From positions 1 through 64,000 of the forward strand of contig PLKM01000015.1 of assembly GCA_003141095.1 (NCBI GenBank): a stretch of DNA of 64,000 nucleotides. Reading direction: 5' to 3'. Below, piece after piece: positions 10,982 through 27,918 of the stretch. The notes beneath the pieces were generated by a model that was not told the origin of the DNA, made no database searches, and was given only the letters and a program-made list of their open reading frames with translations. The position numbers and the translations under genes were made by a program. Source of the DNA: Acidimicrobiaceae bacterium. Lineage in GTDB: Bacteria > Actinomycetota > Acidimicrobiia > Acidimicrobiales > RAAP-2. The stretch's first letter is position 1, and each line of letters starts with the position of its first letter.

Positions 10982-11964
10982 CAAGAGCCGCGACAGCGCA
11001 GGTCACGACCGGTGACCACCGAGCAGTCGTGCCGTGGCAAGTGTGGTTCGTGGTTCTCGGTGCGATATGGGGCTGTTCGTTTTGGTGGATCAAACTCGGT
11101 TTGCGGGCGATGTCACCCGTGGACGTGGCATTCGCTCGTCTCGTTGCCGGTTCGGGCACACTCCTCGTCATTGCCGCTCTGACTCACACGCGCCTACCAC
11201 GAACGTTACGGACGTGGGGACACCTGTTCGTGCTTTCGCTGCTGCTCAACAGCGTGCCCTTCACGTTGTTCTCCTACGGTGAGACCCACATATCGGCGGT
11301 ACTGGCGGGGCTCATCAACGCCTTCACCCCGCTCGCCACGGTAATCGTCGCCCTTTTTGTTTTGCGTCAAGAGCAACCCAACTCGAAGATCCTCGGCGGA
11401 CTGGCGATTGGCTTGGCCGGAGTAGTCGTCGTCATCGGGGCTTGGAACGGTTTCGGGCGAGGCCAACTTCTCGGCATCGGTGCCTGCCTCGTTGCCGTCG
11501 TCTGTTACGGCTTTGGCTTCTCCTACGCTCGCCGCCACCTCAGCCAACTTCCGGACAAGCCGGTCGCCCTGGCGACGGGCCAGGTTCTCTGCGGGACCGT
11601 TCAACTGCTGCCCTTCGCCTTCGCCTTCGGCCACGTCGCGGCCCATCGCCAGGTGTCGTCACTGCTGGCCCTCGCCGCCCTCGGGATTCTGGGAACTGGT
11701 GTGGCGTACATTCTGAACTTCCATATAGTGCGCCACGCCCCCGCCACCATCGCCAGCAGCGTCACCTACCTCACACCAGTCTTTGCGGTCATCGTCGGCG
11801 TGGCGTTTCTCAACGAATCGTTGAGTTGGAACGAACCGGTCGGCGCGCTGCTCATTCTCGTCGGCGCCGCGGTCGCGCAGGATCGTCTCCATCGACGGAC
11901 ACGATTGACGCCTGTCAATGACGCGCAGGAATCCACTGCAGATCAATGGGACCTTGGAAGTTGA
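10978..11964 (+). CDS. EamA/DMT-family transporter
   Basis: A 328-aa membrane protein with about ten hydrophobic segments arranged as two EamA repeats (first repeat from PWQVWFVVLGAIWGCSFWWIK; second from LGIGACLVAVVCYGFGFSYA). Members export amino acids, nucleotides or other metabolites. The frame is open well upstream, but GTG 10978 overlaps the ada stop by 4 bases (GTGA), and the residues before it are not membrane-like. Coupling to ada suggests co-expression under alkylation stress, though the physiological link is unclear. The tail after the tenth helix is short and hydrophilic. Confidence 0.8.
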   Translation: MTRAATAQVTTGDHRAVVPWQVWFVVLGAIWGCSFWWIKLGLRAMSPVDVAFARLVAGSGTLLVIAALTHTRLPRTLRTWGHLFVLSLLLNSVPFTLFSYGETHISAVLAGLINAFTPLATVIVALFVLRQEQPNSKILGGLAIGLAGVVVVIGAWNGFGRGQLLGIGACLVAVVCYGFGFSYARRHLSQLPDKPVALATGQVLCGTVQLLPFAFAFGHVAAHRQVSSLLALAALGILGTGVAYILNFHIVRHAPATIASSVTYLTPVFAVIVGVAFLNESLSWNEPVGALLILVGAAVAQDRLHRRTRLTPVNDAQESTADQWDLGS

Positions 11965-19616: not shown

Positions 19617-19964
19617 GTGCCCAGCATTCGAAACGACCAACCTCTCTACGTCGCCAAGGCCGAACTGTTTCGCTCCCTAGGGAGTCCGGTGCGAATCAGA
19701 ATTCTTGAATTACTGGTCGTCGGAGAGAAGACCGTCGCCAACTTGCTCTCAGCGACCGAAATTGAACCGTCCTCGCTCTCACAACACCTGAAAGTCCTGA
19801 GGAGCTCGGGCCTCGTTGAGTCCAGTCGTCAAGGCAACGCGGTGACCTACCGCGTGACGGACCCGGCCGTGGGTGAATTCCTGGTGGCCGCACGAGCAGT
19901 CTTGGCATCCACTCTGGGTCGTACCCTCATGACCCTTGAAGCGCTTGACGCGCCAGAACCATGA
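19617..19964 (+). CDS. ArsR/SmtB-family regulator (Rv0081-like)
   Basis: A 115-aa winged-helix repressor. The N-terminus PLYVAKAELFRSLGSPVRIRILELL and the recognition helix PSSLSQHLKVLRSSGLVESS are typical of ArsR. I recall a close match to M. tuberculosis Rv0081, a hypoxia-linked regulator that heads the same set of genes. No cysteine is present, so a classic thiolate metal-sensing site is absent, as in the non-metal sensors of the family. GTG 19617 is the start; there is no Shine-Dalgarno and a -10 element lies 6 bases upstream. The stop overlaps the next start by 4 bases (ATGA), tying the regulator to the complex it presumably controls. Confidence 0.88.
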   Translation: MPSIRNDQPLYVAKAELFRSLGSPVRIRILELLVVGEKTVANLLSATEIEPSSLSQHLKVLRSSGLVESSRQGNAVTYRVTDPAVGEFLVAARAVLASTLGRTLMTLEALDAPEP

Positions 19965-20467
19965 GGGGTTCGCGACGTTCGGGTAAGAACGGTCCCCTGC
20001 GCTCCCTGTTTTCCAGGCCCGTCACCGGACCATCTCCCGAGCCGCCCGAGCCGCCCGATGCGCTCAACAAGGCTCGACTTCACGGATCGCTGCAACTGCG
20101 ACACATCGATGTTGGCTCGTGCAATGGCTGCGAACTCGAGATCGCGTCAGCCCTCGGTCCGAAGTACGACGCGCCCCAATTTGGGGTACGTCTCGTCGCT
20201 TCGCCGCGCCACGCCGACGGTCTGCTCGTGACGGGTGTCGTGACCCACAATATGATCGGCCCCCTACACCAAACGCTCGCGGCGCTGCCCCAGCCGAGTG
20301 TGATCGTGGCGTGTGGCGACTGTGCGGTCAACGGCGGGATCTTCAAGGACGCCTACGGAGTGGCCGGCACGCTCGACGAAGTGGTCTCGCCGGACGTTCT
20401 CATTCCGGGCTGCCCACCGCACCCCGCCGCAATTGTCCAAGCCTTGCGCAGTCTCACCGGACGCTGA
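19961..20467 (+). CDS. NuoB/HycG-like iron-sulfur subunit of an Ehr-type complex
   Basis: A 168-aa homologue of the small subunit of energy-converting hydrogenases and of NuoB. It should hold one [4Fe-4S] cluster at the junction of the peripheral and membrane arms. The four ligands are intact: Cys54 and Cys57 in GSCNGCELE, Cys121 in CGDCAVNGGIF and Cys151 in PGCPPHP. The first 40 residues are basic and proline-rich and precede the fold; the alignable part starts at LQLRHIDVGS. It is the first structural gene, overlapping the ArsR stop (ATGA) and followed after 2 bases by the HyfB-like gene. Counterpart by order: M. tuberculosis Rv0082. Confidence 0.88.
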   Translation: MRGSRRSGKNGPLRSLFSRPVTGPSPEPPEPPDALNKARLHGSLQLRHIDVGSCNGCELEIASALGPKYDAPQFGVRLVASPRHADGLLVTGVVTHNMIGPLHQTLAALPQPSVIVACGDCAVNGGIFKDAYGVAGTLDEVVSPDVLIPGCPPHPAAIVQALRSLTGR

Positions 20468-20469
20468 CG

Positions 20470-22467
20470 ATGACCCTCTTGCTCGTGGGACTCGGCTTCT
20501 GCCTTCTGGGGGTCTTGACGAGCGCGCTACCGAGGACCTACCGGGTGCCCGTGACGGCCAGCTGCGCAGCGCTGGGTTGTGCGCTGGCTTTCTGCGCCGC
20601 GATGCGAGTGCTCGTGACCGGTGACACGGTGTCGTTTCACACCACCTTGATCCTCCCGCTGAACGGCTTCGCGATGACGCTCGATCCGCTAGGAGCGCTG
20701 TTCATCGTGGCGACCGCGCTGGTCGGATTCGCTTCGTGCGTGTACTGCATTGGCTACGTTCGAGGCGAACTGCAGTCACGAAGCGCGATGGGTCTGTTCG
20801 TGGCCTTCATCCTTTCATTGCTGGCCGTGCCCGCGGCCTCCAGCATTGCCACGCTGATGCTTTTTTGGGAGTTGATGGCCGTCAGCTCGATGTTGCTCAT
20901 CGTGGTCGAACATCGTCATCGTCGAGAAGCCCGCGACGCTGCGCTGTGGTACGGCGTCATGACCCAGCTCGGGGCGGCGTCGATTCTCCTGGGACTCCTG
21001 TTGCTCACCCTTCGAGGCGGCGGCCAGACGTTCACTGAGATCAAGTCCCACGCGGACGCGCTCTCGCCGATAGTTCGCTCCTCCGCGTTCATGTTGGTGC
21101 TCTTGGGATTTGCCTCGAAGGCGGGGGCCGTGCCGCTTCACGTTTGGTTGCCCAAAGCGCATCCCGAGGCGCCGAGCCCGGTTTCGGCGATGATGTCCAG
21201 TTCGATGGTCGCGATGGGCGTATACGGCATCATCAGGGTCGGCGACGACCTGCTGCACGGGGGAACCGTATGGTGGTGGATCGCCGTCGTCGCGCTCGGC
21301 ACGCTCTCGGCGCTCTACGGGGCGCTGCACGCCACGACGAGCACCGACATCAAACGACTGCTCGCCTACTCCACCATTGACATCCTCGGGCTCGTGCTCA
21401 TCGGCGTCGGGGCCGCTGGCGCGCTTCGCGACACGGGCCATCCCGCGGTGGCCCAGCTGGCCCTGATGGCGGCGCTGCTGCTCGTCGTCGCCCACGCCGG
21501 CTTCAAGGGGGCGCTCTTCCTCGGCGCGGGCGCGGTCGAGCGCGCCACGGGCACGCGCGACCTCGATCAACTCGGCGGCCTGATCCACCGAATGCCCGTC
21601 ACCACGACCATCTTCGCGCTGTCAGCCTGTTCGATCATGGCGGTGCCGACGTTGAGCGGCTTTTCCAGCGAGTGGCTCCTGCTCCAGGGGCTGCTGCACG
21701 GCTTCACCGACGCGAGTACGCCCACCCTCATTGCCCTGCTCGTCGGCATCGTCGCGCTCGCCCTCACGGGGGGTCTGACCGCGGTGGCCTTTGTCAAGGC
21801 CCTCGGTATCGGCTTCTTGGGTCAGGCCCGCACGCTCGGGGCCGTCAACGCCACCGAGGTCGCGCCCACGATGCAGATCGCGATGGCGCTGCTCGGCGCG
21901 GTGAGCATCGTCCTCGGCCTCGTACCGGGGCTCGTGGTACCACTCATCAATCGAGCCGCCCAGAGCGGACTCTCACGTTCGACGATGTCGCCGCTGGCTC
22001 GAGGCACGGGACTGGTACTCGCCCAGTTGCGCGGCGCCATCCAGCCGGCCTTTCTGTTCGTGGGCGCTGCGGCCGTGCTCGTAGCCGTATGGCTGATAAA
22101 CCGGCGACTCGTTCATCGCTCGGCCCGCCGGGTCGACGCGTGGGGGTGTGGCCGCGACGTGCAGACCGCGCGCATGCAGTACACCGCCACTTCCTTCGGC
22201 GAGCCGCTCCAACGAGTCTTCGCCGACGTCCTTCGACCTCAGTCCGACGTTGAACTGACCCACGTCGCCGAGTCGCGCTACTACGAGCAGTCGCTCAAGT
22301 ACCAGAACCAGGTCAGCGACGCGGTCGAGCAGTTCGGGTATCGCCCGGTGATCGATGCCGTCCTGCGCGGTGGGAAGGCCGCCCGACGAATTCAAAACGG
22401 AAGCATTCACCGATACCTCGCCTTCGGGTTCGTGGCGCTGCTCGTGGTGCTGGTGGTGCTGGCGTGA
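20470..22467 (+). CDS. HyfB/NuoL-like antiporter subunit
   Basis: A 665-aa membrane protein with about 14-16 helices, homologous to HyfB and to the ion-pumping subunits NuoL/M/N. The residues associated with ion translocation remain: the glutamate in LMLFWELMAVSSMLL, the lysine in GFASKAGAVPLHVWLPKAHP and the lysine in HAGFKGALFLGAGA. The hydrophilic C-terminal stretch WGCGRDVQTARMQYTATSF is specific to the HyfB branch. The frame is open upstream inside the preceding gene, but ATG 20470 lies 2 bases after that gene's stop and begins the first helix. It should pump H+ or Na+ in the membrane arm. Counterpart by order: Rv0083. Confidence 0.88.
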   Translation: MTLLLVGLGFCLLGVLTSALPRTYRVPVTASCAALGCALAFCAAMRVLVTGDTVSFHTTLILPLNGFAMTLDPLGALFIVATALVGFASCVYCIGYVRGELQSRSAMGLFVAFILSLLAVPAASSIATLMLFWELMAVSSMLLIVVEHRHRREARDAALWYGVMTQLGAASILLGLLLLTLRGGGQTFTEIKSHADALSPIVRSSAFMLVLLGFASKAGAVPLHVWLPKAHPEAPSPVSAMMSSSMVAMGVYGIIRVGDDLLHGGTVWWWIAVVALGTLSALYGALHATTSTDIKRLLAYSTIDILGLVLIGVGAAGALRDTGHPAVAQLALMAALLLVVAHAGFKGALFLGAGAVERATGTRDLDQLGGLIHRMPVTTTIFALSACSIMAVPTLSGFSSEWLLLQGLLHGFTDASTPTLIALLVGIVALALTGGLTAVAFVKALGIGFLGQARTLGAVNATEVAPTMQIAMALLGAVSIVLGLVPGLVVPLINRAAQSGLSRSTMSPLARGTGLVLAQLRGAIQPAFLFVGAAAVLVAVWLINRRLVHRSARRVDAWGCGRDVQTARMQYTATSFGEPLQRVFADVLRPQSDVELTHVAESRYYEQSLKYQNQVSDAVEQFGYRPVIDAVLRGGKAARRIQNGSIHRYLAFGFVALLVVLVVLA

Positions 22468-23432
22468 CTAGTTCCTTCACCGCGACTCTCGCGTACTCGA
22501 TGCCAGCATCCGCCCTTCAGATCGTCTTGGTGGCGCTCGGCGGGCCACTGCTCTTGGGCCTCATGGCAAAGATCAGGGCGAGGGCGGAAGGACGCGTCGG
22601 TGCGCCAATCAGCCAACCGCTCAAGGACATTCGAAAACTTCTCTCCAAGGAACGGCTCCACGCGCGCCACGCCAGCGTGGTGCTGCCCCTCGCACCAATC
22701 GTGATTCTCGCCGCCACCGCCGTCGCGATCGGGATCGCACCGCTGATCACGACCCATCCGGCCCTGGGCGCCAGCGCCGACATTCTGGTGATCGTCTACT
22801 TGCTGCTCACGGGATCCGTGGCCGGCGCGCTCGCCGGTCTTGACACGGGGACCGCGTTCGGCGGCATGGGTGCGAGCCGCGCGATGACCATCGGAGCCCT
22901 CGCCGAGCCTGCGCTGTTGGTGGCGGTGATCGCCCTTTCGATTCAGGCCGGCACCTCCAATCTCCCGGCCATTGTTTCGAGCACCCTCGCCCACCCCAAC
23001 TGGGTCTCGGGGCCGTCGCGGCTTTTGGCGCTCGTAGCCCTGGTGATCGTGATCATCGCCGAAACCGGCAGGCTGCCGGTCGATAATCCCGCAACCCACC
23101 TCGAACTCACCATGATTCACGAGGCCATGATCCTGGAATACGCGGGGCCGGAGTTGGCGCTCGTGACCCTCGGTGGCGCGATGCGTCTCGGACTGCTCTT
23201 CTCGCTCGTCGCCAACCTCTTCTTCCCGTGGGGCATTGGTTCGAATGGATCACTCGTTGGCCTTCTCGTGGGCGTGCTCGCGCTCGCGCTCAAGACGTCG
23301 GTGATCGCAGTGGGCGTGTCGCTCATCGAGATCCACAGCGCCAAACTTCGTCTCTTTCGTCTACCCGAGCTGCTCGCCGGTGCCTTTGTGATGTCGGTGC
23401 TCGCAGTGATCACGGGACTGGTGACGCGATGA
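22464..23432 (+). CDS. HyfC/HycD/NuoH-like membrane subunit
   Basis: A 322-aa protein with about eight helices, homologous to NuoH and to the HycD/HyfC membrane anchors that connect the peripheral arm with the ion pumps. The conserved loops are present: EGRVGAPISQPLKDIRKL after the first helix, and ETGRLPVDNPATHLELTMIH with its carboxylates near residue 200. GTG 22464 overlaps the HyfB-like stop by 4 bases. Counterpart by order: Rv0084 (hycD). Confidence 0.9.
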   Translation: MTSSFTATLAYSMPASALQIVLVALGGPLLLGLMAKIRARAEGRVGAPISQPLKDIRKLLSKERLHARHASVVLPLAPIVILAATAVAIGIAPLITTHPALGASADILVIVYLLLTGSVAGALAGLDTGTAFGGMGASRAMTIGALAEPALLVAVIALSIQAGTSNLPAIVSSTLAHPNWVSGPSRLLALVALVIVIIAETGRLPVDNPATHLELTMIHEAMILEYAGPELALVTLGGAMRLGLLFSLVANLFFPWGIGSNGSLVGLLVGVLALALKTSVIAVGVSLIEIHSAKLRLFRLPELLAGAFVMSVLAVITGLVTR

Positions 23433-24088
23433 ACGCCGCCACCTACACCGGCGCGCTGGAGCTGGCGGCGGGAGCCGTGCTCGTCTCTGCCGTGATGACC
23501 CTGTGGCGGCGTCAGGTGCGCACCATCGTCACCATGCTCAGCCTCCAGGGCATTTCATTGGCGGCCGTCGCGTTGATTCTCGCGGCGCACGAACACGACG
23601 GCGCGCTCGCCCTCACCGGTCTCCTGGTTCTCATCGTGAAGGGTGTCATCGTACCCGGTCTGTTGCGCCGGATCGCCCGTCTTGATCCGCGTTCGCGTGA
23701 AACGACGCCCCTCGTGAACGTGCCGGCTTCCCTGGTCTTTGCCGCGGTGCTCATTGTCTTGTCCTACGTCGTGAGCGCCCGGGTGACGTCGGTGGCGCCG
23801 TCGGTGGCGACTCGCATGGTGCCCATCGGTGTCGCGACCGTACTCGTCGGGTACTTCATGCTCGTGACGCGACGTCGGGCCGTCTCCAAGGTTGTCGGTC
23901 TCATCCTCGTCGACAACGGCATCGCGCTCGTCACCTTCCTTCTGACGTCCGGCGTGCCCCTGATTGTCGAACTGGGATCATCCCTCGACGTCTTGTTGGT
24001 CGTGGTGGTCTTGCAGTTCCTCGTCATCAACATGGGCGAGCAGCTTCGACGCTCCGAACTCGATCAGATGAAGGAGCTCCACGACTGA
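23429..24088 (+). CDS. HyfE-like (NuoK-related) membrane subunit
   Basis: A 219-aa protein with about six to seven helices. It resembles HyfE, whose first part corresponds to NuoK (short helices with buried polar residues, for example MLSLQGISLAAVALILAAHEHD) and whose second part contains VVGLILVDNGIALVTFLL. ATG 23429 overlaps the previous stop (ATGA), and the frame ends in TGATG with the next gene. It should form part of the ion path between the HyfC-like and antiporter-like subunits. Counterpart by order: Rv0085 (hycP). Confidence 0.85.
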   Translation: MNAATYTGALELAAGAVLVSAVMTLWRRQVRTIVTMLSLQGISLAAVALILAAHEHDGALALTGLLVLIVKGVIVPGLLRRIARLDPRSRETTPLVNVPASLVFAAVLIVLSYVVSARVTSVAPSVATRMVPIGVATVLVGYFMLVTRRRAVSKVVGLILVDNGIALVTFLLTSGVPLIVELGSSLDVLLVVVVLQFLVINMGEQLRRSELDQMKELHD

Positions 24089-25554
24089 TGCTCTGCGAAA
24101 TCACCCTCGTCGTCCCGCTGCTGGTGGGTATGCTCGCCGCCGCGTGCCCGTGGCATCGCTGGATTGGTTGGACCATGGCGGGATCCTCCGCGACCGTACT
24201 GGCCCTCGGCGTGGCCCTGTGCCTGCGAACAGCGTCCAAGGCGCCGATCACGGCGCTGCACGGATTCCTTCGCGCCGACTCCCTCAGCTCCTTCATGGTC
24301 GTCGTCATCGGCGTGGTGTCGCTGCTCGCCACGCTCCAAACGCCGCGCACCATGCGCCAGGAGATGGAGGCGGGCATCACCACGCGTCGCTACGCCGGCC
24401 ACTACGCCACGTTGATGCAAGCCTTCATCACCTGCATGCTGCTCGCCGTGCTGGCGGCGAACCTCGGCGTGCTGTGGGTCTCCATCGAGGCCACGACGAT
24501 CGCCACGACGTTCCTCGTCAGCCACCGGCGCACCGATAGGTCGCTCGAGGCCTCCTGGAAGTACCTGATGCTGTGCTCGGTCGGCATCGCCCTCGCCTTC
24601 TTCGGCACCGTGCTCGTCTACTTCGCCGAGCTGCACGTCGGCGGAGGGCATCTCCAGAGCGCGTCACTCGACTGGACGTCGGTGATGGCCAGTGCCCATC
24701 ACCTCAATCCCGACGTGATGCGTCTCGCGCTCGCCTTGCTGATCCTGGGCTACGGCACCAAGGTGGGGCTGGTGCCGATGCATAGCTGGCTTCCCGACGC
24801 GCACAGCCAAGCCCCCGCGCCCGTGTCGGCATTGATGTCGGGCGTGCTGCTGTCGGTCGCCTTCTACGCCCTCTTGCGCTTCAAGGCGATTGCCGACGCC
24901 GCGTTGGGTCCAGCCTTTCCACGCGAGCTCTTCATCGTCGTCGGCCTCGCCTCACTGGTACTCGCCGCGACGATGCTAATCGCCCAGCGCGACTACAAGC
25001 GCATGCTGGCCTATTCGAGCATTGAGCACATGGGACTGCTCGCGCTGGGCGCCGCCGCCGGAAGTCCCCTCGCCATCGCCGCGGTCCTTCTGCACATTCT
25101 CGGTCACGGTGTCACCAAGTCGGTGCTGTTCCTCTCGTCGGGCGAGATCCACCACGCCGCCGGAACCACCGAGATCGCGAAGGTCTCCGGACTCTTGTCA
25201 CGACAGCCGGTGCTCGGCGGCGTCTTCGGCTTCGGCCTGCTCGCGCTCTTGGGATTCCCCCCCTTCAGCCTCTTCGTCAGCGAGTTCACCATGGCCCGGG
25301 CCGAGGTGGACTCCGGGCTCTGGTGGGTCGTCGCCCTGTCGCTCGTCTGTCTCGCGGTGATCTTCGGGGCCATAGCCATGCATGGTCGACAGATGCTCCT
25401 GGGCGACGCGGTGACGACCAACGGACCCACCGCGACCGTTCGATCGGTCGCGCTTCCGCTCATCACGGGTCTCGTGTTCTGTGCGGTAATCGGCATCTCG
25501 GCGTGGCCCCTCCAGTCACTGCTGCACGACGCGGCTCGCGTGGTGGTGCGATGA
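24088..25554 (+). CDS. HyfF/NuoN-like antiporter subunit
   Basis: A 488-aa protein with about 14 helices, a second ion-pump-like subunit. Key residues persist: the glutamate in LWVSIEATTIATTFLV, the lysine in YGTKVGLVPMHSWLPDAHS and the lysine in GHGVTKSVLFLSSG. The stop and start are shared as TGATG with the HyfE-like gene and ATGA with the next gene. With the HyfB-like subunit this gives the complex two antiporter modules, the same membrane arm as the Hyf (hydrogenase-4) type. Counterpart by order: Rv0086 (hycQ). Confidence 0.9.
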   Translation: MLCEITLVVPLLVGMLAAACPWHRWIGWTMAGSSATVLALGVALCLRTASKAPITALHGFLRADSLSSFMVVVIGVVSLLATLQTPRTMRQEMEAGITTRRYAGHYATLMQAFITCMLLAVLAANLGVLWVSIEATTIATTFLVSHRRTDRSLEASWKYLMLCSVGIALAFFGTVLVYFAELHVGGGHLQSASLDWTSVMASAHHLNPDVMRLALALLILGYGTKVGLVPMHSWLPDAHSQAPAPVSALMSGVLLSVAFYALLRFKAIADAALGPAFPRELFIVVGLASLVLAATMLIAQRDYKRMLAYSSIEHMGLLALGAAAGSPLAIAAVLLHILGHGVTKSVLFLSSGEIHHAAGTTEIAKVSGLLSRQPVLGGVFGFGLLALLGFPPFSLFVSEFTMARAEVDSGLWWVVALSLVCLAVIFGAIAMHGRQMLLGDAVTTNGPTATVRSVALPLITGLVFCAVIGISAWPLQSLLHDAARVVVR

Positions 25555-27032
25555 CGGGCATCCGGTCCATCGATGAGATCGGGGTCGATGAACTTCACGG
25601 GCGCTCGACGACGCTTCTCGACGCCGGTCACCGTTTGGCGACGGTCGTGGCGCACGACGACGGCGATTTCCTACGCGTCGTGTACGTCTTCACCATGGGA
25701 CCGCCGGACGTGCGACACGAACTCGTGGTCCGACTCAACGCCACGAGCCCGGTGGTGCCGTCGCTGAGCGATCTCTCCTTCGTCGCGAGCCGGTTCGAGC
25801 GAGAGCTCCACGACACCTTCGGCATCGTCCCTGCCGGCCACCCGTTCGTGCGCCCGCTCGTGCGCCACCAGCACTGGCCCGAGCGCTGGTATCCCCTTCG
25901 CCGCGACGCCGGTCCCATGCCGGCGATGCGCGACGACAGCGCTCCCTATCCGTTCATTGAGGTCCAGGGCGCCGGCGTGTACGAAATTCCGGTCGGCCCG
26001 GTGCACGCCGGGCTCATCGAGCCGGGGCACTTCCGCTTCTCCGTGGTGGGCGAGACCATATTGAAAATGACCGCCCGGCTGTGGTACGTGCACCGGGGCA
26101 TCGAGCGGATGCTCCAAGGCGCCGACGTCGCGAGCGGACTTCAGATCGCCGAGCGGATCTCGGGTGACACCGCCGTCGGCCACTCGCTGGCCTACTGCAT
26201 GGCCGTGGAGGAAGCCCGCGGGCTCGTCGTGTCCGACGATGCGTTGGTGCTACGCGCAGTGCTGTTGGAGATGGAACGGCTGTACAACCACGTGGCCGAT
26301 GTTGGCGCGCTGTGCAATGACGTCAGCTTCGGCGTCGCCGACGCCCGCGCGTCGGTCATTCGCGAGCAGTTGCTGCGCCTCAACGAATCCGTGACGGGTC
26401 ATCGGTTCTTGCGCGGTGCGATCAGCGTGGGTGCGACCAGCGTGAAGAGGCTCCCCAGTCGATCGGAACTTCTCGACGTCGCCGAGCAGTTCGAGGCACT
26501 GGTGCGACTCGCAACCTCCAACAGCGTGGTCGTGGACCGCTTCGAGGGAACGGCCGTGCTTTCGGCGAAAGACGCCCTCGCGATCGGCACGCTCGGTGTC
26601 GTGGCCCGGGCATCGGGGCTCGCGATCGACGCGCGCGCGCAGCACCCTTTTCTGGCGTCACCCTCCCCCTTCGAGCCGGTGATTCATCAGGCGGGTGACG
26701 TGATGGCCCGATTCGACCAACGCGTCGGTGAAGTTCGCGCCTCGCTGCAGCTCGTCGAACATTTCTGCACGATGGCGACGCCGCTGGCTGGCAGCAGTGA
26801 GGTGGTGACGCCCGCCCTAGGCTCGGGGCTCGGCTTGGTCGAGGGATGGCGCGGCACCATTGTCCATCGCGTGGAACTTGACCGCGACGGAATGATTTCG
26901 CGTGGTCGAGTCGTCGATCCGTCCTTTCATAACTGGCCCGCCCTTTCCATTGCATTGGCCGACACGATCGTGCCGGATTTCCCGCTGGCCAACAAGAGCT
27001 TCAACCTTTCGTACGCCGGCAACGACCTGTGA
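25551..27032 (+). CDS. HyfG/HycE-like large subunit lacking all NiFe-binding cysteines
   Basis: A 493-aa fused NuoC-NuoD-like protein. Residues 1-130 are the NuoC part (SRFERELHDTFGI) and the rest is the hydrogenase/NuoD part. In group 4 hydrogenases the metal is held by RxCGxCxxxH near the start of the catalytic domain and by a CxxC near the C-terminus. Here the first motif reads RISGDTAVGH, with Ser204 and Thr207 in place of Cys. The second reads LSYAGNDL, with Ser487 and Gly490 in place of Cys. The protein ends three residues later, so there is no C-terminal extension for a maturation protease. It therefore cannot bind a normal NiFe centre. ATG 25551 overlaps the HyfF-like stop. Counterpart by order: Rv0087, annotated hycE. 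Confidence 0.9.
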   Translation: MTGIRSIDEIGVDELHGRSTTLLDAGHRLATVVAHDDGDFLRVVYVFTMGPPDVRHELVVRLNATSPVVPSLSDLSFVASRFERELHDTFGIVPAGHPFVRPLVRHQHWPERWYPLRRDAGPMPAMRDDSAPYPFIEVQGAGVYEIPVGPVHAGLIEPGHFRFSVVGETILKMTARLWYVHRGIERMLQGADVASGLQIAERISGDTAVGHSLAYCMAVEEARGLVVSDDALVLRAVLLEMERLYNHVADVGALCNDVSFGVADARASVIREQLLRLNESVTGHRFLRGAISVGATSVKRLPSRSELLDVAEQFEALVRLATSNSVVVDRFEGTAVLSAKDALAIGTLGVVARASGLAIDARAQHPFLASPSPFEPVIHQAGDVMARFDQRVGEVRASLQLVEHFCTMATPLAGSSEVVTPALGSGLGLVEGWRGTIVHRVELDRDGMISRGRVVDPSFHNWPALSIALADTIVPDFPLANKSFNLSYAGNDL

Positions 27033-27275: not shown

Positions 27276-27707
27276 GTGAAGCGCCTTGTGGCCGCTGCCG
27301 TGATAACTGTTGCCTACGCGTGGTGGGCCACCAGTGTCGCCCCCTTCACCGCGATTTGCTACGTGCTGATCGCCGTCCCGTCAGTCCTCGCGGTGGTGCT
27401 CTACGCCGCTGTGGGTGCCTTTTCACGTGACCGGACGGACATCGCGCGCTACTACCAGGCAAGGGCCGGCGACTCGTCGTTCTCGAGCATCACCCCGTGG
27501 TTGCTCGTGCTTTGCTGTGTCCTGGCTCTCGAGAGCGTCGGACTCGCTCTCGGCGGTCGGTCACCGGGCGTCCCCACGCTCAGCACGGCGGTCGATCATC
27601 TTCTCGTGGAGCACTGGGAACGCGGCATTCTCTTCGTGCTGTGGGTATGGGTGGGGGCCAGTCCGCTCTGGCGCCTCTGGCGACAACGACAGAAGAATCA
27701 ACGCTGA
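27276..27707 (+). CDS. Small membrane protein, unknown function
   Basis: A 143-aa protein with about four hydrophobic segments: residues 3-20, 27-50, 72-92 and 115-135. A short positively charged C-terminus, LWRQRQKNQR, places the tail in the cytoplasm under the positive-inside rule. I do not recognise the family with certainty; it resembles small membrane proteins often found paired with DUF6186 proteins in actinobacteria. The second gene starts 1 base after its stop, so the two form a two-gene unit. Confidence 0.6.
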   Translation: MKRLVAAAVITVAYAWWATSVAPFTAICYVLIAVPSVLAVVLYAAVGAFSRDRTDIARYYQARAGDSSFSSITPWLLVLCCVLALESVGLALGGRSPGVPTLSTAVDHLLVEHWERGILFVLWVWVGASPLWRLWRQRQKNQR

Positions 27708-27708
27708 T

Positions 27709-27918
27709 ATGTACGCGACGATCGGCTGGCTCGTACTCTTAGGGGCCAGCATCCTTATCGAGGCATACGGACGATTCCGGTCGGCGAGGACCTCGAGTCT
27801 GGCCCGATTGGGAGCGCTGCTCGCGACACGGATTCCGGGTCGAGTCGTCCTGCTGCTGATCTGGGTATTTGTCGGCGTGCATCTCTTCGCGCGCTACACC
27901 CTTTCCCATCACTCGTAG
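27709..27918 (+). CDS. Small two-helix membrane protein, DUF6186-like
   Basis: A 69-aa protein with two hydrophobic helices (residues about 3-20 and 44-62) around a basic loop, FRSARTSSLARLGALLATR. The ending LIWVFVGVHLFARYTL resembles the DUF6186 family of actinobacteria. A longer open frame begins at 27415 inside the preceding gene, but the ATG at 27709 comes one base after that gene's stop and begins the first helix. The function is unknown. The tight spacing with the preceding membrane protein suggests that they work together. Confidence 0.6.
   Translation: MYATIGWLVLLGASILIEAYGRFRSARTSSLARLGALLATRIPGRVVLLLIWVFVGVHLFARYTLSHHS

What the first reader, a model, noticed from the sequence alone, without database searches (positions are those of the whole stretch)
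19617..27032. Complex I/hydrogenase-like operon whose large subunit has lost every NiFe ligand
The large subunit has Ser204 and Thr207 in the first metal motif and Ser487 and Gly490 in the last, where group 4 NiFe hydrogenases have four cysteines, and it has no C-terminal tail for maturation. The rest of the complex is intact, including the ion-pump residues of both antiporter subunits. Frames are uninterrupted and genes overlap by 4 bases, so it is under selection. It fits the energy-converting-hydrogenase-related (Ehr) class, whose reaction is unknown. Seven genes in the same order as M. tuberculosis Rv0081-Rv0087 suggest conserved purpose, possibly linked to low oxygen.
Basis: partly seen in the sequence, partly recalled or inferred. 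Interest (0 to 1): 0.88.

Follow-up and report, generated by a model that had tools for sequence, protein, structure and literature searches.

The report
Hydrogenase-derived ion pump without nickel-iron site
This seven-gene cluster is predicted to encode a regulator and a membrane complex related to respiratory complex I and to hydrogen-making enzymes; it carries serine, threonine and glycine where the nickel-iron catalyst would be held, and since some relatives have also lost ligands of the last iron-sulfur cluster while keeping nearly all ion-path residues, the complex is likely an ion-moving machine whose core job may not need electron transfer.

Summary
Window 19617-27032 encodes ArsR, small subunit EhrS, HyfB/C/E/F-like membrane subunits and a HycE-like large subunit, EhrL, with S204, T207, S487 and G490 where HycE has its four NiFe cysteines. 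It is a member of the known but unexplained Ehr class (M. tuberculosis Rv0081-87 type). The former metal site is conserved, not decayed: SGD[ST]xxxH and NKSFNLSYAGNDL are almost invariant in 125 close rows.

The new point comes from relatives. The EhrS 4Fe-4S ligands, complete in the window, are gone in a Patescibacteria-type clade (120 of 120 listed relatives keep at most one of four) and are decaying in a clade inside the window's own actinobacterial branch (66 of 120 listed). In 12 loci with two or fewer ligands the E-channel and antiporter charges are nearly all kept; 11 genomes of ligand-poor loci show no complex I.

I infer that the conserved function is proton-coupled ion transport that does not depend on electron transfer; in the window the cluster probably gates or feeds it. 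A redox-driven pump with an unknown acceptor is a close rival. No function was tested.

The parts
19617..19964 (+). ArsR-family regulator, 115 aa, start GTG, no cysteine
   Evidence: NF033788 HTH_metalloreg 80.2 bits, over its cut-off, PF01022; ArsR directly upstream in 20 and downstream in 5 of 33 complete loci of this clade
19961..20467 (+). EhrS, NuoB/HycG-like small subunit, 168 aa; all four 4Fe-4S ligands present (C54, C57, C121, C151; a fifth cysteine, C118, is not a ligand position)
   Evidence: PF01058; motifs SCNGC, GDCA, GCPP aligned with HycG; positions checked
20470..22467 (+). HyfB-like antiporter subunit (open frame from 20464, first ATG 20470)
   Evidence: NF005086 538.7 bits, below its cut-off; charged residues E136, K219, K297, H344, K348, E403, K445, numbered from 20464
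22464..23432 (+). HyfC/HycD/NuoH-like membrane anchor carrying the E-channel-type residues
   Evidence: PF00146; D127, E148, E200, D207, H212, E214, H219, E220, E225, E289
23429..24088 (+). HyfE-like membrane subunit, 219 aa
   Evidence: NF008556 66.6 bits, below its cut-off; no Pfam match
24088..25554 (+). HyfF-like antiporter subunit, 488 aa
   Evidence: NF005045 387.7 bits, below its cut-off; E134, K158, K225, H340, K344, E399
25551..27032 (+). EhrL, large subunit (NuoC + NuoD/HycE fusion), 493 aa
26160..26183 (+). first former metal motif, EhrL 204-211 SGDTAVGH (HycE CGICGFAH)
26991..27029 (+). last former metal motif and C-terminus, EhrL 481-493 NKSFNLSYAGNDL (aligned with HycE up to CYSCTDR)
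20120..20413 (+). span of the four EhrS 4Fe-4S ligand codons (C54-C151), the residues lost in relatives

Best explanation
The operon likely encodes an Ehr-type ion-translocating complex, descended from a membrane-bound NiFe hydrogenase, in which the old proton wire and membrane pump have outlived the nickel-iron catalyst, so that its conserved job would be proton-coupled ion transport and not catalysis on hydrogen. Shown: no NiFe ligands; a strongly conserved polar site in their place; HycE proton-path residues retained in the window (H152, E157, H247, R353, E394, R434); E-channel and antiporter charges retained; and, in two relative clades, loss of 4Fe-4S ligands with these parts kept apart from scattered changes (R353 to K in six rows is the commonest). 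Inferred: protons enter from the cytoplasm through the EhrL path, pass the polar pocket and the beta1-beta2 loop glutamate E157 into the HyfC E-channel, and drive or balance ion movement in HyfB and HyfF, as in an Mrp-like proton/cation exchanger with a gating peripheral arm. In the window, EhrS keeps all four cluster ligands, so the cluster is probably still present; I expect it to act as a redox gate or electron relay on top of the transport function. The ion, the direction and the signal sensed by ArsR are unknown.
For: Pocket conservation in 125 close rows. Across 82 locus rows, 78 lack the NiFe ligands (2 of these cut off before the last motif) and 4 keep all four; D206 is kept in 76 of 82. 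4Fe-4S ligand loss: the 120 listed nearest relatives of a Patescibacteria EhrS all keep at most one cysteine (TCDD 114, SCDD 4, DCDD 1, TEDD 1); of the 120 listed nearest relatives of a Microbacteriaceae EhrS 66 lost one or more, 17 of them two or more, with S/N/G/Q/A/D/T at the fourth position. Two main clades of loss on trees built without the ligand columns. In 14 ligand-poor rows H152/E157/H160, GD[ST], E394 and R434 are kept in 14 of 14. In 12 loci with two or fewer cysteines the charges of HyfB and HyfC listed under parts, conserved in cluster-bearing loci, are kept in 12 of 12 or 11 of 12; HyfF has a few more exceptions. Purifying selection on an operon lacking one ligand: dN/dS 0.028-0.116 for seven genes, two Cryobacterium species. 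In 11 of 11 genomes of ligand-poor loci (9 of those 12 plus the two Cryobacterium) the only PF00346 matches lie in EhrL itself, so no complex I as far as assembled. F1 ATP synthase genes lie beside ehr in 3 of 15 loci of the Patescibacteria-type clade, L079, L080, L097. No match to E. coli HypA-D or HycI in 80 loci.
Against: The window and 54 of 63 loci with a readable small subunit (50 of 59 without the four NiFe-bearing loci) keep all four ligands, so the cluster is under selection in most sampled Ehr complexes and redox work there is not excluded. The cluster-less clades may have changed function after losing redox coupling. A three-cysteine cluster (Cryobacterium, CCCS) could still be present and even catalytic, as in MBS (PMC7684303, passages). 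Nitrospira-type loci L075, L076 and L081 have 2-oxoacid:ferredoxin-oxidoreductase-type genes beside ehr (L076 by homology only), pointing to ferredoxin; L144, L145 and L162 carry a ferredoxin-like N-terminus on EhrS. A Geobacter Ehr was more abundant with formate (PMC7894505, passages). In ligand-poor rows R353 is K in 6 of 14, H211 is lost in 2 of 14, H247 and N246 in 1 (L162), and HyfF E399 is kept in 10 of 12, H336 in 10, D64 in 8. No transport was measured.
Confidence: 0.4

Rival explanations
1. Redox pump with an unknown acceptor: a soluble donor such as ferredoxin reduces the EhrS 4Fe-4S cluster, which reduces a small molecule in the polar pocket, and the energy drives ion pumping. The cluster-less clades are derived and do something else.
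For: Four cluster ligands kept in the window and in 54 of 63 loci; ferredoxin-oxidoreductase-type genes beside three Nitrospira-type operons; three POR_N proteins over the cut-off in the own genome; MBS is a precedent without NiFe (PMC7684303, passages).
Against: No NuoI/HycF-type electron-input subunit matched in 80 loci except L092; L144, L145 and L162 carry a ferredoxin-like N-terminus on EhrS. EhrS has hydrogenase-type CxxC spacing, not the shortened MBS loop. Residues of the complex I quinone site are absent: the NuoCD tyrosine aligns with G205, NuoCD H224 with I156. Two clades lost cluster ligands but kept pocket, E-channel and pump.
Confidence: 0.35
2. Formate dehydrogenase-linked Ehr: a separate formate dehydrogenase feeds electrons into EhrS, as proposed for Margulisbacteria and relatives.
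For: Proposed in PMC6349859 (passages); Geobacter Ehr proteins more abundant with formate (PMC7894505, passages).
Against: I recognised no formate dehydrogenase among the 60 largest flank clusters of 80 loci, judged by eye from one representative each; no HycB match and one HycF match. The Geobacter paper says that the physiological role was never investigated there.
Confidence: 0.08
3. Carbon dioxide/bicarbonate machine: the pocket hydrates CO2 or handles bicarbonate and the proton released is fed to the pump, comparable to DAB or NDH-1MS systems.
For: A cadmium-type carbonic anhydrase homologue is divergent from ehr in L079 (3bob, E 3.5e-7); SulP-type transporters sit upstream in Methylobacter-type L093, L098 and L102; DabA and an antiporter subunit beside the NiFe-bearing L101.
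Against: Few loci and no common gene; the SulP matches score best to DauA/sulP, all below cut-off. The same queries matched no other locus of the 97 searched, so none in the window's clade; of the window's own flanks only four neighbours were checked. No metal ligand set recognised in the pocket.
Confidence: 0.08
4. A cryptic NiFe hydrogenase using other ligands.
For: Fold is that of HycE.
Against: All four ligands replaced in the window and in nearly all of 125 rows; no HypD in the own genome nor in the genomes of L056, L057, L079 and L096 (the genomes of L082, L035 and L093 have one, perhaps for other hydrogenases).
Confidence: 0.02

Closest known systems
Ehr complexes, including Rv0081-Rv0087 of M. 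tuberculosis
   Same: Ligand-less group-4-type large subunit, NuoB-like small subunit, HyfB/C/E/F-like membrane arm; same gene order with ArsR as the published Rv0081-87 list
   Different: Nothing basic for the window member. Added here: the conserved replacement signature and the 4Fe-4S ligand loss in two relative clades
E. coli formate hydrogenlyase (Hyc/Hyf)
   Different: No NiFe ligands, no HycB/HycF/HycI in the operon; canopy D529 is N485, S283 is N246, a new D206
Respiratory complex I (NuoB/CD/H and antiporter-like subunits)
   Different: No quinone tyrosine or beta1-beta2 loop histidine at the NuoD columns, no NADH module in the operon, hydrogenase-type cluster motif
MBS sulfane reductase of Pyrococcus furiosus
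   Same: Complex I relative without NiFe
   Different: MBS keeps two NiFe-site cysteines and has a three-cysteine proximal cluster (PMC7684303, passages); the window keeps none of the former and all four of the latter
Mrp antiporters
   Same: Antiporter-like subunits; transport without redox (recalled)
   Different: Mrp has no peripheral arm (recalled)

Membership tests
Ehr (energy-converting hydrogenase-related) | Group-4-like large subunit lacking the NiFe cysteines | tested here: met
   S204/T207/S487/G490 at HycE C241/C244/C531/C534
Ehr (energy-converting hydrogenase-related) | Linked small subunit, NuoH-like anchor and antiporter-like subunits | tested here: met
Ehr (energy-converting hydrogenase-related) | Branches with other ligand-less large subunits | tested here: met
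   Inside a starred 47-row clade that holds no ligand-bearing row; the deep branching of ligand-bearing rows is poorly resolved (quick tree)
Group 4 NiFe hydrogenase | Four NiFe cysteines | tested here: not met
Group 4 NiFe hydrogenase | Hyp maturation in the genome | tested here: not met
   No HypD match in the 93%-complete genome; other Hyp proteins not searched
Group 4 NiFe hydrogenase | C-terminal extension removed by a protease | tested here: not met
   Ends at the HycE R537 equivalent; not diagnostic, ligand-bearing relatives lack it too
Respiratory complex I | Quinone-site Tyr and beta1-beta2 loop His of NuoD | tested here: not met
   G205 and I156 at these columns; the role of the Tyr is recalled, that of the His is from passages of PMC9474812
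Respiratory complex I | NADH module NuoEFG in the operon | tested here: not met
   No such gene among the seven
MBS sulfane reductase | Shortened proximal-cluster loop with three-cysteine coordination | tested here: not met
   EhrS aligns with HycG without a gap at CxxC and has all four cysteines
Rv0081-87 type operon | Orthology of EhrL to Rv0087 | not tested
   The M. tuberculosis sequence was not fetched; other Mycobacteriaceae loci (L046, L048, L050, L051, L054) are 53-57% identical with the same gene order
Mrp-like proton/cation antiporter (works like) | Proton/cation exchange without redox | not testable with these tools
   Only conservation of charged residues was tested

The most novel reading that the evidence does not exclude
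Ehr is an electron-free relative of complex I. The coupling machinery that was thought to exist to use redox energy (pocket, beta1-beta2 loop, E-channel, antiporters) works in Ehr as a proton-driven transporter with no need for a redox centre; the iron-sulfur cluster of window-type members is an optional gate, and two lineages have dispensed with it.
Probability: 0.33. Interest if true: 0.9.

Novelty: new member of a known kind. Interest (0 to 1): 0.62.

Why it matters
Ehr complexes occur in many phyla, from Mycobacterium and Streptomyces to Nitrospira and Patescibacteria, and the papers I opened give no established reaction for them. If some run without any redox cofactor, they separate the two halves of the complex I problem: what the peripheral site must do chemically, and how its state is passed to the ion pumps. 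A cluster-less Ehr would be a natural uncoupled or re-coupled complex I, usable to test coupling models, and its ion specificity could be measured without knowing an electron donor. It would also redirect work on the mycobacterial hyc locus, which is often described as formate hydrogenlyase.

Tried and rejected
Flanking genes as a guide to substrate: clustering the flanks of 80 loci gave only ArsR (23 loci) and ORFs that I read by eye as sensor kinases (22 loci) as widespread families; other neighbours are lineage-specific, so no substrate follows from them. The L160 neighbour looked to me like a beta-carbonic anhydrase by eye, but Pfam, NCBIfam and PDB searches gave no support; dropped. ArsR as a metal sensor: the window protein has no cysteine and the alignment of relatives shows no conserved one; the effector stays unknown. 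Two HyfC histidines (H212, H219), absent from E. coli HycD, first looked Ehr-specific to me (notebook), but NiFe-bearing L094, L101 and L105 have them too; dropped.

Print: I saw no mention of lost EhrS cluster ligands in the listings of the ten paper searches or in the passages opened (13 papers, passages only, none read whole). Marreiros et al. 2013, on the Ehr class, was not seen and is only recalled; it may report this.

Full report
What is there. Seven frames on the + strand between 19617 and 27032 have no internal stop. They match ArsR, NuoB/HycG (EhrS), HyfB, NuoH/HycD (HyfC), HyfE, HyfF and a NuoC+NuoD/HycE fusion (EhrL); the best NCBIfam scores of the structural subunits are below the curated cut-offs, as expected for a divergent family. 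Four junctions overlap by 4 bases, one by 1 base and one does not overlap.

Not a hydrogenase. The own genome (2.5 Mb, 93% complete) has no HypD match. It has a separate NuoD and three over-cut-off POR_N matches. M. tuberculosis Ehr has been judged not to be a functional hydrogenase because the assembly genes are missing (PMC6728331, passage). The absence of a C-terminal tail is shared with ligand-bearing relatives and proves little.

Family and distribution. Only 5 of 198 genomes of the class, own included, carry a relative of 55% identity or more; 18 of 396 genomes of the phylum, own included, match a Cryobacterium EhrL at E 1e-60 or better; 6 of 192 genomes of the phylum of L079 (a Daviesbacteria MAG), its own included, match its EhrL. 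In M. tuberculosis the locus was listed as horizontally acquired, with some genes predicted essential (PMC3087520, passages). On a quick tree of 101 rows, with the motif columns removed, the window sits in a starred clade of 40 rows, nearly all actinobacterial, nearest to L034 (an Acidobacteria-labelled MAG), then L053, L149 and L033. The structural gene order is the same in 33 of 33 complete loci of this clade (8 of 41 were cut off and set aside), with ArsR directly upstream in 20, downstream in 5 and in neither place in 8.

The iron-sulfur cluster. The window EhrS has all four ligands, with CxxC spacing as in HycG. Of 63 loci with a readable small subunit, 54 have all four (four of these are the NiFe-bearing loci); L056 and L057 lack the fourth; L064, L079, L090, L096 and L112 lack three; L097 is partly masked; L070 is ambiguous. 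A database search with the L079 protein listed 120 relatives (of 7975 matches): none has more than one of the four cysteines (TCDD 114, SCDD 4, DCDD 1, TEDD 1). A search with the L064 protein listed 120 relatives (of 3731 matches): 54 complete, 49 lacking only the fourth ligand, 17 lacking two or more. On an EhrS tree without the ligand columns the losses of the second set, with L056, L057 and L064, lie in one clade of 71 rows whose named members are mostly Microbacteriaceae and Arthrobacter, in which the fourth position varies among S, N, G, Q, A, D and T and two rows have all four cysteines; the TCDD-type rows lie apart. The TCDD-type clade is mostly Patescibacteria but includes Thermoleophilia-labelled and other members of the window's phylum (L090, L147, L148). 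Named isolates carry the losses, among them Cryobacterium levicorallinum and C. glaciale, C. algoritolerans and Arthrobacter livingstonensis.

What stayed when the cluster went. In 14 rows with ligand loss, EhrL keeps H152/E157/H160, the GD[ST] core, E394 and R434 in 14 of 14, S204 in 12, H211 in 12, H247 in 13, R353 in 8 (K in 6), and SY[AS]G near the C-terminus in 13 of 13 (L064 is cut by the contig end). In 12 loci with two or fewer cysteines, charged positions that are conserved in the cluster-bearing set are kept in 12 of 12 for the HyfB residues listed among the parts and in 11 or 12 of 12 for the HyfC ones; HyfF shows more exceptions (E399 in 10 of 12, H336 in 10, R264 in 9 with K in 3, D64 in 8). 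The cluster-bearing set there is 61 rows including the window, of which 51 to 59 could be aligned at each position, and it includes NiFe-bearing loci. Between two Cryobacterium species, whose EhrS lacks one ligand, dN/dS is 0.028 to 0.116 over the seven genes. In 11 of 11 genomes of ligand-poor loci (9 of the 12, plus the two Cryobacterium) the only PF00346 matches lie in EhrL, so they lack complex I as far as assembled.

Reading. If redox drove the pump, losing the only cofactor should release the coupling parts from selection. In two clades it did not. The simplest reading is that the conserved work is proton-coupled ion transport. ATP synthase genes beside ehr in L079, L080 and L097, in different arrangements, fit a role in ion gradients; these are 3 of 15 loci in that clade, with unequal flanks. 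For the window itself this is inference: its cluster ligands are complete, so it may also be redox-linked. Results that favour a redox role are the ferredoxin-oxidoreductase-type genes next to Nitrospira-type loci, the ferredoxin-like N-termini of EhrS in L144, L145 and L162, the published formate link in Geobacter (PMC7894505, passages) and the FDH-Ehr proposal (PMC6349859, passages). The inorganic-carbon neighbours are a lead only.

Compared with print. Ehr and its missing NiFe ligands are known (PMC6349859, PMC10284858, PMC4378227, PMC7304191, PMC6728331; passages read). The CPR paper PMC7304191 reports missing ligands of the large subunit; the passages I read do not discuss the Ehr small subunit. 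So the window member is a new member of a known kind; the ligand state of EhrS in relatives is what I did not find in print, in the searches named under Tried and rejected.

Noticed in passing
G156:C113:19967-21352: A distant large-subunit relative whose matched frame holds five in-frame TGA codons and no other stop type reported; either decay or TGA read as an amino acid.
   Followed up: no
L144 and L145 EhrS (G531, G281): The small subunit carries an N-terminal ferredoxin-like stretch with two 4Fe-4S-type motifs (by eye) fused to EhrS, so some Ehr may have a built-in electron-input domain.
   Followed up: partly
L162 4656-5402: EhrS has D-A-D-N at the four ligand positions but an N-terminal ferredoxin-like motif (by eye); its large subunit is a very long branch.
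   Followed up: partly
L101 2-4528 and 13792-15513: A Planctomycetota locus that still has all four NiFe cysteines carries DabA, an antiporter subunit and a SulP-type transporter beside the complex, a possible hydrogenase and inorganic-carbon cluster.
   Followed up: partly
L035 10001-12541: In Candidatus Mycobacterium methanotrophicum the match runs past the EhrL stop at 11482, further short frames match EhrL, and a second ArsR follows; ArsR lies on both sides of the operon here and in L050.
   Followed up: no
window 27276-27707 and 27709-27918: Two small predicted membrane proteins follow EhrL on the same strand after 243 bases; the first has no NCBIfam match.
   Followed up: partly
L034 (JAGXBH010000035.1): The closest large-subunit row on the tree (70%) is in a MAG labelled Acidobacteria, far from the other Acidobacteria rows; transfer or a binning error.
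   Followed up: no
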